DNA from: an uncultured Bacteroidota bacterium
GTDB taxonomy: Bacteria; Bacteroidota; Bacteroidia; Bacteroidales; P3
Direction of reading: 5' to 3'
Length of the DNA stretch: 64,000 nt
Assembly: GCA_902775135.1 (NCBI GenBank)
Contig: CACYKY010000010.1
Location: 1-64,000, forward strand
Shown here: piece after piece, positions 55,303 to 60,388 of the stretch
How positions within the stretch are numbered: position 1 is the first letter of the stretch
How the letters are laid out: every line of letters begins with the position of its first letter
Notes under the pieces: model-generated
Told to the model about the DNA's origin: nothing
The model's database searches: none
What the model saw: the letters and a program-made list of their open reading frames with translations, nothing else
Translations under genes and position numbers: made by a program

Positions 55303-55845
55303 ATGAAAATAAAATATCTCAAAATAAAGAACTGGTTTTTGGTTACCCTGATGGGGGCTATGGGTCTTTCTTCGTGCCACTGTCACAAAGAGTTGGCAGA
55401 ACCGCAGCCCGAAAATCCTCCCGTGCAGGATCAGGAACGGATACGTCTGATGTACGGTGTGCCGACGATGAATTTCATGATTCGTGGGCAGGTGAAAGAT
55501 GCCAATGGCATACCGGTGCGCGACATACGGGTCAATATGCTTGAACGTGGCATGGATGTGGAGAACGGTGAGCTGCAGGGCGACCCCGAAAATGTGCAGC
55601 GCTTCCTGGACAACACCTCCGTGCGTACTGACGACGAGGGGCGTTTCACCATCCAGAACAGCGGCTTACCTCAGCAGCAGGTGCGTCTGTTGGTGCGCGA
55701 TGTGGATGGTAGGGAGAACGGTGAATTCCGCAGCCAGGTGGTCGACATGAAAGTAGAAGACAAGGATGTGGATCGCACCAATGCCGGTGGCTGGAATCAG
55801 GGAACCTTCAACAAGGAGGTGAAAATCAGGCTGGAAAACAGATAG
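55303..55845 (+). CDS. radical SAM-associated putative lipoprotein
   Basis: The 180-residue product has a signal peptide with lipobox LSSC (Cys25), then Pro/Glu-rich linker and the motif RLMYGVPTMNFMIRG (Tyr51-Gly52-Val53-Pro54). The rest looks like a carboxypeptidase-regulatory/CnaB-like beta-sandwich (GQVKDANGIPVRDIRVNML and RLLVRDVDGRENGEF), ending WNQGTFNKEVKIRL. This matches the lipoprotein half of the rSAM/lipoprotein system known in Bacteroidota, and the radical SAM gene follows. The lipoprotein is presumed to be its substrate, but modification has not, to my knowledge, been shown. After the TAG at 55843 the same frame stays open for 29 codons with a second copy-like motif. Confidence 0.85.
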   Translation: MKIKYLKIKNWFLVTLMGAMGLSSCHCHKELAEPQPENPPVQDQERIRLMYGVPTMNFMIRGQVKDANGIPVRDIRVNMLERGMDVENGELQGDPENVQRFLDNTSVRTDDEGRFTIQNSGLPQQQVRLLVRDVDGRENGEFRSQVVDMKVEDKDVDRTNAGGWNQGTFNKEVKIRLENR

Positions 55846-55935
55846 GATTCCGGCTGCCCTGAGTCGGAATATGACGATTCTACTAGGGTGGAGCTGATGT
55901 TTGGTATGCAGGAAACGGACTATCAGGTAAAGTAA
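55846..55935 (+). other. in-frame tail after TAG with echo of the lipoprotein motif
   Basis: Codons 55846-55935 in the lipoprotein frame encode a 29-residue peptide starting DSGCPESEYDD and ending LMFGMQETDYQVK before TAA. The last part aligns residue by residue with RLMYGVPTMNFMIR of the lipoprotein (L-M, Y/F-G, F/Y and I/V-R/K conserved). An ATG at 55897 could start a 12-residue peptide that ends 8 bp before the radical SAM start codon. It may be a relic of a second lipoprotein, a readthrough extension or a small peptide gene. Confidence 0.4.
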
Positions 55936-55943
55936 TAATAACT

Positions 55944-57017
55944 ATGGGTTTGTCGCTCGGGCAGAGGGTAGGGTTGGAGCTGCAGCGGTCGTTGCGCCAC
56001 AACGAGGCGCAATTGCATCCATTGCGGACTTTGTTTTGGGAGTGTACGTTGCGCTGTAACATGAGTTGCCGTCACTGCGGTAGCGACTGTAAGGTGCAGC
56101 CGGAGGTGAAGGATATGCCTGCCGAGGACTTCCTTCGTGTCATCGATTTGATTACTCCTCATGTGGACACCCATAAGGTTTTCATTATCTTCACTGGTGG
56201 CGAGGCGCTGCTGCGTCCTGACTTGGAGGAGGTGGGCCTCGAACTCTACCGTCGAGAGTATCCCTGGGGCGTGGTGACCAATGGATTCCTGCTGGACGAG
56301 AAACGATTGGAGAGTCTGTTGGCCAGCGGCATGCACTCTATCACCGTCAGCCTTGACGGCTTCGAACAGCAGCACAACTGGATACGATGCCACCCGCAGT
56401 CGTTCGAGAAGGCCACCCATGCCATCCGTCTGTTGGCGCAGACGAAGGACATCCTGTGGGATGTGGTCACCTGCGTCAATCCGCGAAACTATCCCCACCT
56501 GCGGGAATTCAAGGATTTCTTGGTTGCGATCGGCGTTCCCTCCTGGCGCCTTTTCAGCATTTTCCCTATGGGGCGTGCCGCTGGAAATGCTGAGCTTCAG
56601 TTCAGCGACGATCAGTTCCGTGGCCTGTTGGATTTTATCAAAGAGAGTCGGGAGCAGGATGCCAGAATCGCCGTCAGCTATGCTTGCGAGGGCTTCCTTG
56701 GGGAGTATGAACAGAAGGTCCGCAGCCAGTTCTTCCACTGCCGCAGCGGTGTCGATGTGGCCAGCATTCGTTGTGACGGCGCTATCAGCGGCTGCACATC
56801 CGTGCGTAGCCAGATGGATCAGGGCAACATCTACAAGGATGACTTCTGGGATGTGTGGCAGAACCGCTTCCAGGTGATGCGAGACCGCTCGTGGGCCAAG
56901 AAAGGCCAATGTGCCACGTGTAAAGTCTGGCGCTACTGCGAAGGCTCGGGCCTCCACCTCTACGACGACAACGGCGACCTGCTCTGTTGTCATTACCAGA
57001 GGACTTTACGGTTATAG
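55944..57017 (+). CDS. radical SAM enzyme of the rSAM/lipoprotein system (SPASM-like)
   Basis: Radical SAM enzymes use a [4Fe-4S] cluster and SAM to make a 5'-deoxyadenosyl radical. The 357-residue product has the cluster motif CNMSCRHC (Cys38, Cys42, Cys45), the GGE motif in FIIFTGGEALLRPDL, and a C-terminal SPASM-like set of cysteines (FFHCRSGVD, SIRCDGAISGC, GQCATCKVWRYCEGS, LLCCHYQ) that would hold further clusters. Such enzymes modify peptides or proteins. It follows the lipoprotein gene by about 100 bp and is likely co-transcribed. Modification of a protein that is later exported implies action in the cytoplasm before secretion. The reaction is unknown. Confidence 0.9.
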   Translation: MGLSLGQRVGLELQRSLRHNEAQLHPLRTLFWECTLRCNMSCRHCGSDCKVQPEVKDMPAEDFLRVIDLITPHVDTHKVFIIFTGGEALLRPDLEEVGLELYRREYPWGVVTNGFLLDEKRLESLLASGMHSITVSLDGFEQQHNWIRCHPQSFEKATHAIRLLAQTKDILWDVVTCVNPRNYPHLREFKDFLVAIGVPSWRLFSIFPMGRAAGNAELQFSDDQFRGLLDFIKESREQDARIAVSYACEGFLGEYEQKVRSQFFHCRSGVDVASIRCDGAISGCTSVRSQMDQGNIYKDDFWDVWQNRFQVMRDRSWAKKGQCATCKVWRYCEGSGLHLYDDNGDLLCCHYQRTLRL

Positions 57018-57088: not shown

Positions 57089-57592
57089 ATGGCAGACGAA
57101 AACAGACAGCAATACGACACCTATTGTGCGTTCATGGAACGGCACCGTGAAATGGTGTGGCATATCTGTTGGCGTTTTGCCAAAGGCAACCGAATGGCAT
57201 GCGAAGATATGGTGCAGGAGGTCTGGATAGCATTGTGGATGAAGTTCGACCAACTGAAGACCGAGGTCTCCGAAAGGGAGCAGCGGGCTTGGCTGAAGCG
57301 CATCACCCGGTCGGTGCTGGTTGACCTCTATCGACGCGCTGAACCTGAATCCGAGCAACTCACCCCGGCACTTGTCAACATGTTGCCTGATACCCCTATC
57401 AACTATGCCGAGAGCATAGACGACCTGATGGCCGCACTCACAGACGACGAGGAACGGATGATGAGGATGCGCCTTGAAGGCTACGACGCGCAGGAGATTG
57501 CCGACGAGTTCAAGATGGAGCGCAACGCCGTCTACGTGCGTATCAATAGAATAATAGCTAAACTTCGGAAGCGTTATGGAACAGGACTATAA
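57089..57592 (+). CDS. ECF-type sigma factor
   Basis: The 167-residue product has region 2 (about 15-80, HREMVWHICWRFAKG, EDMVQEVWIALW) that binds the -10 element and core, and region 4 (about 110-165, DDEERMMRMRLEGYDAQEIADEF and the helix-turn-helix around RNAVYVRINR) that reads the -35 element. Group IV sigma factors of this kind drive stress or transport genes. The next gene overlaps its end by 17 bp and encodes a single-pass membrane protein that could hold it. A receptor gene follows. What it senses is unknown. Confidence 0.92.
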   Translation: MADENRQQYDTYCAFMERHREMVWHICWRFAKGNRMACEDMVQEVWIALWMKFDQLKTEVSEREQRAWLKRITRSVLVDLYRRAEPESEQLTPALVNMLPDTPINYAESIDDLMAALTDDEERMMRMRLEGYDAQEIADEFKMERNAVYVRINRIIAKLRKRYGTGL

Positions 57593-58019
57593 AGAACAGT
57601 TGCGGATGATGACCGAGGGGCTGGGTGAGTGGATGGACCGCCGCGAACGCGAGCAACGCCGTCGCCGCCGTTGGCTGCGCGTGGCGCTGGGCGTGGTGGT
57701 CGTCGCCGCTGCCGTGCTGCTGCAGGTATTCTTCCCTTGGCGCCGCGAGACAGTAAAGTATATCTACGTCAAAGACTCTCTCCAGATTCACGACACAATA
57801 ACAACTCAACCCTCCAAGCAAACATTCACAAAGAAACCCACAGGCATCGCCATTGGCGAGAAAGGTGTCCGCATCAGCGGAAGTGAGAATGGCGAGTGGG
57901 GTAGCATAGACATCGACGAAAATGGAGTCCGTATCATCGGAGGCGGCAACGAGGAGGTAGGCAGCATTGTGATTGATGCCAACGGCGTCCGCATCAATGG
58001 TAAGGAGATTAATCATTGA
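57576..58019 (+). CDS. putative anti-sigma-like single-pass membrane protein with repeats
   Basis: The 147-residue product has a cytoplasmic N-terminus (about 1-33) rich in Arg and Glu, a membrane helix at about 34-53 (VALGVVVVAAAVLLQVFF) and a periplasmic part. The latter ends in three short repeats of the pattern I-x-I-x-x-x-GVRI-x-G (at about 90, 110 and 131), a beta-like structure. It lacks the FecR or zinc anti-sigma domains usual in this position. The 17-bp overlap with the sigma gene suggests translational coupling and partnership. Not a family I recognise. Confidence 0.75.
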   Translation: MEQDYKEQLRMMTEGLGEWMDRREREQRRRRRWLRVALGVVVVAAAVLLQVFFPWRRETVKYIYVKDSLQIHDTITTQPSKQTFTKKPTGIAIGEKGVRISGSENGEWGSIDIDENGVRIIGGGNEEVGSIVIDANGVRINGKEINH

Positions 58020-58039
58020 TACGTATAGCATCAAAAAAG

Positions 58040-58072
58040 AACGCCTCCGTTGTAAGATTCGGAGGCGTTTTT
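58040..58072 (+). terminator. intrinsic terminator
   Basis: AACGCCTCCG (58040-58049) pairs with CGGAGGCGTT (58060-58069), followed by T. It lies between the sigma/anti-sigma pair and the receptor gene. Confidence 0.88.
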
Positions 58073-58102
58073 GCGTATTATATTGGTAAACGGACAACCA
58101 TT

Positions 58103-60388
58103 ATGAGAAGAATTCTGTTTACCCTTGCGCTCGCCTTGATGGGAGTGAATGCATTCGCCCAAACCATCAGCGGCCGCCTAGCAGATGACGGCGGGCGACC
58201 CATCGCCTTCGCCAACGTGGCTCTTTATGCAGATACGGTGCTTCAGACAGGTACCACTACCGGCGAAGACGGCACTTTCTCTATCGAGTGTGGCAATGGA
58301 ACGTACAACCTTGAGGCATCGTATGTGGGTTATGAAAGGCTTAGTGTCCGGTGTCAGGCGGGCGACCTTGGCACATTGACGATGAGCGCCTTGCAGCTCC
58401 ACGAGGTGGAGATAACCGCTAGCCGCGTAGCCGAGGAGGTGAACCGCTACGTCGTCCTGCCCAAGCCCGAAGAGGTGGAGGCCGCTGGACGGACGCTGGT
58501 GCTGCTCGACATGCTGGGCCTGCCGGGACTGAAGGTTGATGTGGCGCTGCAGAGCATCACTGTCGATGGCGGCCTAGCCATTCTGCAAATCAACGGTAAG
58601 GAGGTGCCCATGGCACGATTGGCCAACCTGAGAGCCGAACAGATCAAGCGCGTGGAATACAGCAATAACCCCGGTATACGATATATGGACCGTGGCGCTT
58701 CGGGTATCATTAATATAATACTAAAAGAACGCGAGGACGGCGGCAGCATCGTGGCCAATGGAAATACGGCGTTTACTACGGGATTCACCAACGGTTACTT
58801 GCACGGTTCCTATCACAGAGGCAAGAGCGAGTTCGCTTTGGAGTACACTCTCGGCTATCGCAACTATCACAATGTGCCATACGAGATGGAGGACTGTTAC
58901 CTCGCCCCCACGCGCAACGTCGTCCGCAGCCAGCGCACCAATATGCCGTTCTGGTACATCACTCACGAGTTGACCGCCGAATATACCTACCAGCATGATG
59001 ATAGCACCATGTTCGTGGCCGCCCTCAGAGACAACCTCTTTGCCAAGACCCTTAGTGCCAACGGCACGATGACCGAGACCGACCGCGGTGTCACCTCCGA
59101 GCAGTCTCTTGAGGAATTGCAGCATCAACGCGACAACCTCCCCAGCCTTGACCTCTTCTTTACCTATCGAATGCCCTACGGACAGAAGGTGGAGCTGAAC
59201 GTGGTGGGCGAATATTCCACCAACCGCTATGACAACACGCTCACCTACAGCGCCGGGGGGCTCGCACCTGCAACCTATGCCACCGACGTCGACGGTCACG
59301 GATACGCCCTCAGCGCCGAAGGTGTCTACAGCAAGCGCCTGAGCAAGGCCGAATTGCGGACAGGCCTCCAATATCAGCACAACTTCGCCGAGAACGACTA
59401 TACACTTTACGGCACCACCACCTCTATGACTAAGGACAACGCCTACCTTTACGCCGAGTTGACGGGCTCATTAGGTCCAAATGTAGGCTATTCTATCGGC
59501 ACCGGCGCCAAGCTTTTCAACGTAAGTGACAGCGAGCAGAGCAAACGCTACCTGCGCAACCTCAGCACCGCCCGCCTGCAATGGCGCATCATCCAGCAGC
59601 TTTCGCTCACCGCCACAGCGCAATATACACCAATCCTGCCCACACTGGCTTCACTCTCACCCGTCTTCCAGCAGACCGACGACGTTGAGGGCCAGCAGGG
59701 AAACCCCGACCTCCAGCCCAGCGAACAGCTGCAAGTTGGTCTACTGCTACGCTACACTCATCCTAAGGGCTATTACGCTATCGCTAATACCGGATTGATG
59801 CACATCTTCCATCCCCACTTTGACGGCTACCGATATGATGCCGGGCGTGACCTCTTCGTCCTCAGTTATTATGAAGCTGATCGATGGCATGTGCCCTATG
59901 GTTATTTGGAAACAGGTGTCAAAGGCCTTTGGAACCACTTGAATCTCTCGTTTGCAGGCGTGTACTTCCACTATGTCTCAGAAGGTCCGGAGTTCTCCCA
60001 CACGCGTGACAACATTGCTGCCGAGATCAATGTCCAATTCTTTTGGAAAGGCGTTGTGGCCGGCGCCAATTTCACACTGCTGCCACGAGTGAAACTGCTC
60101 GCCGAAGACTATACGAAAGACGAGATGACCCAAGAAGTCTATTTGCAGTACAGATGGAAAAGCCTCACGGCCTCCGCCATGTGGCTCTGTCCGCTTAACC
60201 CCGACGGCTACAGTTATGAGGTGCAGGGGCTCAGCACCGTACATCCCTTCCGCCACATCCACTGGACCGCTGACAACGGGAACATGTTCGTCCTCGGCCT
60301 CACTTGGCAGATGGACTTCGGCCGCCAGTATCGCAAGAGTGAGAAGACCCTTCAGAACGGCGGCTACGACAACGGCATGGTGCGATAG
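58103..60388 (+). CDS. outer-membrane beta-barrel receptor (OMP_b-brl_3 type, CarboxypepD-reg-like)
   Basis: From the ATG at 58103 the product has 761 residues; a frame extends upstream but the signal peptide (MRRILFTLALALMGVNAFA) marks this start. A carboxypeptidase-regulatory-like domain (ISGRLADDGGRPIAFANVAL, about 20-95) is followed by a plug-like region (LDMLGLPGLKVDVALQSIT, GIRYMDRGASGIINIILK) and a long barrel with aromatic-ended strands. It is a TonB-type receptor without an adjacent lipoprotein partner. The upstream sigma factor might regulate it, but a terminator lies between them. The ligand is unknown. Confidence 0.88.
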   Translation: MRRILFTLALALMGVNAFAQTISGRLADDGGRPIAFANVALYADTVLQTGTTTGEDGTFSIECGNGTYNLEASYVGYERLSVRCQAGDLGTLTMSALQLHEVEITASRVAEEVNRYVVLPKPEEVEAAGRTLVLLDMLGLPGLKVDVALQSITVDGGLAILQINGKEVPMARLANLRAEQIKRVEYSNNPGIRYMDRGASGIINIILKEREDGGSIVANGNTAFTTGFTNGYLHGSYHRGKSEFALEYTLGYRNYHNVPYEMEDCYLAPTRNVVRSQRTNMPFWYITHELTAEYTYQHDDSTMFVAALRDNLFAKTLSANGTMTETDRGVTSEQSLEELQHQRDNLPSLDLFFTYRMPYGQKVELNVVGEYSTNRYDNTLTYSAGGLAPATYATDVDGHGYALSAEGVYSKRLSKAELRTGLQYQHNFAENDYTLYGTTTSMTKDNAYLYAELTGSLGPNVGYSIGTGAKLFNVSDSEQSKRYLRNLSTARLQWRIIQQLSLTATAQYTPILPTLASLSPVFQQTDDVEGQQGNPDLQPSEQLQVGLLLRYTHPKGYYAIANTGLMHIFHPHFDGYRYDAGRDLFVLSYYEADRWHVPYGYLETGVKGLWNHLNLSFAGVYFHYVSEGPEFSHTRDNIAAEINVQFFWKGVVAGANFTLLPRVKLLAEDYTKDEMTQEVYLQYRWKSLTASAMWLCPLNPDGYSYEVQGLSTVHPFRHIHWTADNGNMFVLGLTWQMDFGRQYRKSEKTLQNGGYDNGMVR

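What the first reader, a model, noticed from the sequence alone, without database searches (positions are those of the whole stretch)
55303..57017. rSAM/lipoprotein pair: an uncharacterised modification system
A predicted lipoprotein with a conserved Tyr-Gly-x-Pro motif next to a radical SAM enzyme with SPASM-like cysteines. The family pairing is known from sequence, but the chemistry and purpose are, to my knowledge, undescribed. The strongly conserved motif near the lipid anchor is the natural candidate for the modified site. Modification would happen in the cytoplasm before export, then be displayed on the membrane.
Basis: partly seen in the sequence, partly recalled or inferred. Interest (0 to 1): 0.75.

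Follow-up and report, generated by a model that had tools for sequence, protein, structure and literature searches.

The report
Probable backbone-splicing enzyme for lipoproteins
A gut-type Bacteroidales genome pairs a membrane-anchored protein with a radical enzyme that probably cuts a piece out of the protein's backbone at a Tyr-Gly site, as cyanobacterial 'spliceases' do, which would give a chemically unexplained enzyme/lipoprotein pair a concrete, testable chemistry.

Summary
Window 55303-55845 is a TIGR04134 lipoprotein and 55944-57017 a TIGR04133 radical SAM/SPASM enzyme. The pair is a known but chemically unexplained family.

The new point is the likely chemistry. The shared element of the partners is not the lipoprotein fold but X-Tyr-Gly, usually X-Y-G-x-P-x-x-x-[F/Y]. 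It recurs in unrelated partners: TTR-like lipoproteins, 50-80-residue mini-lipoproteins, Ser-rich Fibrobacter repeat proteins, and T9SS proteins with no lipid anchor. All 22 enzyme clusters that belong to the family have such a partner; the one cluster below the family cut-off has none.

[quoted passage not shown] A Nostoc PlpX-family enzyme sits beside a precursor ending ALYGLPPELF, with the spacing of window LMYGVPTMNF. In trees TIGR04133 joins the splicease group, not the heme, mycofactocin or TIGR04053 enzymes.

It is not a TIGR04103 member: score far below cut-off, no PlpY-like gene found, no Nif11 leader, one SPASM cysteine replaced by Gly. No reaction was tested. The key splicease survey (Chem 2022) was not readable here and may already include this family.

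The parts
55303..55845 (+). TIGR04134 lipoprotein gene (180 aa), the predicted substrate
   Evidence: NCBIfam TIGR04134 90.1 bits, cut-off 39.8; weak Pfam CarboxypepD_reg, below cut-off; AF2 beta-sandwich, mean pLDDT 81.6
55303..55377 (+). Signal peptide and lipobox, MKIKYLKIKNWFLVTLMGAMGLSSC; C25 is the predicted lipid anchor
   Evidence: sequence; G21 and C25 are invariant in 34 aligned relatives
55450..55458 (+). X-Tyr-Gly site M50-Y51-G52, the predicted splice site
   Evidence: same motif in unrelated partners and in a Nostoc PlpX-type precursor
55453..55476 (+). Extended motif Y-G-V-P-T-M-N-F (YGxPxxxF, Y51-F58)
   Evidence: identical spacing in Nostoc YGLPPELF
55846..55935 (+). Relic of a second mini-lipoprotein gene (DSGCPESEYDDSTRVELMFGMQETDYQVK*); a 99-bp deletion removed start codon, signal peptide and first YG
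   Evidence: DNA alignment with L010 and L034; protein match 1.1e-5
55944..57017 (+). TIGR04133 radical SAM/SPASM enzyme (357 aa), predicted splicease
   Evidence: 579.7 bits, cut-off 425; tree with PlpX-type enzymes; AF2 pLDDT 92.3
56055..56078 (+). CxxxCxxC cluster motif, C38-C42-C45, followed by G46-S47 shared with splicease relatives
   Evidence: invariant in 45 relatives; group comparison
56739..56990 (+). SPASM cysteines C266, C284, C323, C326, C332, C349; canonical CX3C position is Gly336 (56949-56951)

Best explanation
A stand-alone two-gene protein-modification system. [quoted passage not shown] The conserved signal peptide may take the place of a RiPP leader. The protein is then exported by the ordinary lipoprotein route, so a reactive ketoamide is displayed close to the membrane anchor, possibly as a covalent trap for proteases or amines. 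Shown: gene pair, motif recurrence across unrelated partners, relatedness to splicease-family enzymes. Inferred: that the enzyme acts on this motif (about 0.85), tyramine excision (about 0.6), recognition through the signal peptide (about 0.4), ketoamide function (about 0.25).
For: (1) All 22 clusters (75% identity) of TIGR04133 enzymes have an adjacent exported XYG protein; the only one without (L068) is below the family cut-off at 254 of 425 bits. (2) The motif recurs in unrelated proteins: mini-lipoproteins with two MYG sites and little else (L032, L033, L036, L038), Ser-rich Fibrobacter proteins with three ALYGPP sites (L066) or several KYG/LYG sites (L055), and T9SS proteins (L061, L062). 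(3) Only Y and G are constant; X is M, L, E, A, K, C or T. (4) PlpXY acts on MYG and LYG sites; published tags include PIRPLYGLPI (PMC10533398). (5) A Nostoc TIGR04103 enzyme (853 bits) lies beside a Nif11 precursor ending RGSIALYGLPPELF; related enzymes lie beside six KYGYP-type repeats (L120), LLYGTPP (L118), MYGTG (L110) and LYG/PYG DUF1843 peptides. (6) TIGR04133 joins these enzymes against MftC, TIGR04053, NirJ and AhbD-like (UFBoot/SH-aLRT 99/98 and 100/98); two alternative placements are rejected, AU p 0.0001 and 0.001.
Against: No PlpY-like gene in the loci by phmmer, although PlpX is reported to work as PlpXY. No Nif11 or NHLP leader. TIGR04133 lacks the CX3C SPASM cysteine present in all 14 splicease-group enzymes and has its own invariant cysteines C49 and C248, plus C177 in 98%, so active-site details differ. 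Its TIGR04103 score (104 bits) is far below the cut-off of 725 and slightly below its NirJ2 (118), TIGR04053 (117) and AhbD (112) scores. Only one reference enzyme is a TIGR04103 member above cut-off, and activity was measured (by others) for PlpXY, not for any enzyme in these trees. The conserved aromatic at +7 is not explained by the XYG rule alone.
Confidence: 0.6

Rival explanations
1. The enzyme modifies the XYG motif by another radical reaction: a Tyr cyclophane or ether crosslink, a thioether, or epimerisation.
For: Many radical SAM/SPASM enzymes do these reactions (established knowledge). The aromatic at +7 and Pro at +3 are widely conserved. The SPASM cysteine set differs from the splicease group.
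Against: No single partner for a crosslink from Tyr is conserved: +2 can be Gly (L036), +3 can be V, L, G, M, Q or R, +7 is non-aromatic in several partners, and Cys is not conserved. The enzymes group with the X-Tyr-Gly splicease clade.
Confidence: 0.25
2. The YG motif is a structural feature of the lipoprotein fold, and the enzyme does not modify this protein.
For: In the TTR-like lipoproteins the motif sits at the start of the first strand, where structural conservation is plausible.
Against: The motif is present in partners with no such domain, including 50-80-residue mini-lipoproteins and low-complexity repeat proteins, and adjacency to the enzyme strongly predicts it.
Confidence: 0.1
3. 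The enzyme acts on an unlinked substrate and the lipoproteins are accessory binding or sensing proteins.
For: The genome encodes a second TIGR04133 enzyme and further lipoproteins away from this locus.
Against: The second enzyme also has its own adjacent YG lipoprotein (L009), and other conserved neighbours were not seen across families.
Confidence: 0.05

Closest known systems
NCBIfam TIGR04133/TIGR04134 rSAM/lipoprotein pair
   Same: Both genes score above the curated cut-offs and are adjacent. This is the same family.
   Different: The family models give no chemistry; TIGR04134 also misses several partners found here, such as the lipoprotein beside the genome's second enzyme (L009).
PlpX-type spliceases (TIGR04103; IPR026482 in PMC11002830) and spliceotides
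   Same: X-Tyr-Gly site, frequent Pro at +3, identical YGxPxxxF spacing in one Nostoc precursor, several sites per protein in some partners, shared enzyme clade, and shared residues such as G46-S47, T176, W201, G250, S286.
   Different: Exported protein substrates instead of Nif11 or NHLP precursors, no PlpY-like gene found, one SPASM Cys missing, extra invariant cysteines, score far below the TIGR04103 cut-off.
TIGR03913 GDL-motif/DUF1843 peptide maturases
   Same: Same enzyme clade; partner peptides often start with LYG or PYG.
   Different: Short DUF1843 peptides without signal peptide, some with YA instead of YG.
Mycofactocin MftC
   Same: Radical SAM/SPASM enzyme that acts on a Tyr (established knowledge).
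   Different: Acts on a C-terminal Val-Tyr with MftB; falls outside the clade.

Membership tests
TIGR04133/TIGR04134 rSAM/lipoprotein system | Both proteins above curated cut-offs | tested here: met
   579.7 of 425 and 90.1 of 39.8 bits
TIGR04133/TIGR04134 rSAM/lipoprotein system | Adjacent genes, lipoprotein with signal peptide and lipobox | tested here: met
   55303-55845 and 55944-57017, same strand, lipobox LSSC
Radical SAM/SPASM | CxxxCxxC and SPASM domain | tested here: met
   Pfam Radical_SAM and SPASM above cut-off; C38, C42, C45 invariant
Radical SAM/SPASM | Full seven-cysteine SPASM pattern | tested here: not met
   CX3C position is Gly336; Gly or Ser in all TIGR04133 rows. Invariant C248 might substitute, untested
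PlpX-type splicease | Score above TIGR04103 cut-off | tested here: not met
   104 bits against 725
PlpX-type splicease | Same enzyme clade as TIGR04103 | tested here: met
   99/98 and 100/98 support; two alternative placements rejected. Limited outgroup sampling
PlpX-type splicease | X-Tyr-Gly site in the partner | tested here: met
   M50-Y51-G52; adjacent XYG partner in 22 of 22 family clusters
PlpX-type splicease | PlpY (RRE) partner | tested here: not met
   No phmmer hit of one Nostoc PlpY-like candidate in the TIGR04133 loci; a diverged partner is not excluded
PlpX-type splicease | Nif11 or NHLP leader on the precursor | tested here: not met
   Partner has a signal peptide; no such Pfam or NCBIfam match
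PlpX-type splicease | Loss of C8H9NO and ketoamide formation | not testable with these tools
   needs expression and mass spectrometry

The most novel reading that the evidence does not exclude
A widespread family of gut and rumen bacteria backbone-splices its own lipoproteins and other exported proteins, using the signal peptide as leader, so that reactive ketoamides are displayed on the cell envelope. In some members (C-Y-G directly at the lipobox: L009, L107, L057, L064) the spliced residue would be the lipidated cysteine itself.
Probability: 0.3. Interest if true: 0.85.

Novelty: new variant of a known kind. Interest (0 to 1): 0.62.

Why it matters
It turns an orphan enzyme/lipoprotein pair, found here in Bacteroidales, Fibrobacter and Treponema, into a specific testable prediction: a -135.068 Da backbone edit at a named Tyr-Gly. 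If true, post-translational protein splicing reaches the envelope of common gut bacteria and places an electrophile, of a kind reported to inhibit proteases in spliceotides (PMC11117315, PMC10373908), at the membrane surface. It would also supply spliceases without a separate leader-binding partner.

Tried and rejected
Literature: no held paper mentions TIGR04133, TIGR04134 or the phrase 'rSAM lipoprotein'. Scott et al. [quoted passage not shown] Novelty against these is unresolved.

Pattern search for the motif in the own genome gave no more than the reversed-pattern control. PlpY homologue search: nothing. No solved structure of a TIGR04133 or PlpX-type enzyme turned up by sequence; best matches are other radical SAM enzymes such as BlsE, SkfB and anSME.

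The ECF sigma/membrane protein/OMP genes downstream (57089-60388) were rejected as part of the system: in several close relatives metK follows the enzyme within about 200 bp. L063, L058 and L064 were checked for a lipoprotein-enzyme fusion: none.

Bias to note: alignment A2 was built from partners already found by a [YFW]G.[PQ] filter, so its invariant Y, G and P overstate conservation; one search used no such filter.

Full report
WHAT IS THERE. The two genes are at the stated coordinates. The lipoprotein (55303-55845) scores 90.1 bits against TIGR04134 (cut-off 39.8) and the enzyme (55944-57017) 579.7 bits against TIGR04133 (cut-off 425); Pfam finds Radical_SAM and SPASM in the enzyme and only a weak CarboxypepD_reg hit in the lipoprotein. 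The lipoprotein model (mean pLDDT 81.6) is a beta-sandwich with a signal helix and a low-confidence linker at 26-50; Y51-P54 lies just before the first strand at 55. Foldseek matches are other beta-sandwich and carboxypeptidase-D-type domains. The enzyme model is confident (pLDDT 92.3) and resembles SkfB, BlsE and anSME.

A MISSED PIECE. In close relatives a second, mini-lipoprotein gene lies between the two (L010...SSCEKQEDMYGCPEPDYNDSTGMEPMYGVRETDFRAIN). In the window a 99-bp deletion removed its start, signal peptide and first YG, leaving 29 codons after the lipoprotein stop. The genome also has two more TIGR04134-type lipoproteins on another contig, one with EYGCPEADY and one without the motif, and a second TIGR04133 enzyme whose upstream neighbour, missed by the HMM, is a lipoprotein with C-Y-G at the lipobox.

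THE COMMON FACTOR IS X-TYR-GLY. I gathered 60 related loci, the genome's second enzyme and three plasmid-borne relatives. The enzymes form 23 clusters at 75% identity. Twenty-two have an adjacent exported protein with X-Tyr-Gly. The exception, L068, scores 253.6 bits, below the family cut-off. Partners fall into unrelated types: TTR-like lipoproteins; mini-lipoproteins with two sites and almost nothing else; Ser-rich Fibrobacter proteins with repeated sites; Fibrobacter T9SS proteins without lipobox, one with a Por_Secre_tail match; and one exported protein without lipobox Cys in G160 (L143). Without filtering on the motif, 56 of 83 adjacent lipoprotein-like ORFs carry YGxP against 8 of 207 others; these are related sequences, so the p-value is not literal.

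WHY SPLICING. PlpXY excises tyramine at X-Tyr-Gly and naturally uses MYG and LYG (PMC10533398; PMC11002830). A Nostoc plasmid carries a TIGR04103 enzyme (853 bits) with a Nif11 precursor ending RGSIALYGLPPELF and a 71-aa gene in the PlpY position. Its YGLPPELF has the same Y, G, P and F spacing as the window's YGVPTMNF. Other enzymes related to TIGR04103 lie beside KYGYP-type repeats, LLYGTPP, MYGTG and LYG/PYG peptides. Trees with IQ-TREE place TIGR04133 with these enzymes, separate from MftC, TIGR04053, NirJ and AhbD-like (99/98; 100/98 after removing long branches). Forcing TIGR04133 with AhbD/NirJ-type or with TIGR04053 enzymes is rejected (AU p 0.000135 and 0.00102). Shared residues include G46-S47, T176, W201, G250 and S286. 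Not every SPASM family was sampled.

ALTERNATIVES. Crosslinks from Tyr to +2, +3 or +7, and thioethers, lack a constant partner residue across sites. Epimerisation is not excluded by sequence. A purely structural role of YG does not explain its presence in low-complexity and mini-proteins.

MEMBERSHIP. It is a member of TIGR04133/TIGR04134. It is not a member of TIGR04103: score, PlpY and leader criteria are not met, and the CX3C cysteine is Gly336 while C49 and C248 are invariant and C177 nearly so. It is proposed to work like a splicease, which is a separate claim.

WHAT REMAINS UNKNOWN. No reaction was observed. The signal peptide as leader is an inference from its unusual conservation (G21 and C25 invariant). 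The role of a displayed ketoamide is a guess based on reported protease inhibition by spliceotides (PMC11117315; PMC10373908). Whether the 2022 survey already covers this family could not be checked.

Noticed in passing
window 57089-60388: ECF sigma factor, a small membrane protein with tandem 'GVRI-G' beta-like repeats, and a CarboxypepD_reg/outer-membrane beta-barrel protein lie between the enzyme and metK (60566); in several relatives metK follows the enzyme directly, so the cassette looks inserted.
   Followed up: partly
L009 (G000 contig C22), upstream of the second TIGR04133 enzyme: 125-aa lipoprotein with Tyr-Gly directly after the predicted lipid cysteine (FQACYGPMEDYYDTK); same C-Y-G layout in Treponema L107 and Paludibacteraceae-type L057/L064.
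   Followed up: partly
L120, 2949-3596: Protein beside a TIGR04103-like enzyme with six C-terminal KYGYP-type repeats, a probable multi-site splicease substrate in Bacteroidales.
   Followed up: no
L018, second lipoprotein; L035, upstream paralogue: Partner copies with MYD or CYAP in place of the YG site, possibly decayed or non-substrate paralogues.
   Followed up: no
L008, 7019-7869 (minus): Tandem TIGR04134-type lipoproteins without an adjacent enzyme, downstream of a small SMR-like membrane transporter; the second has lost the motif.
   Followed up: partly
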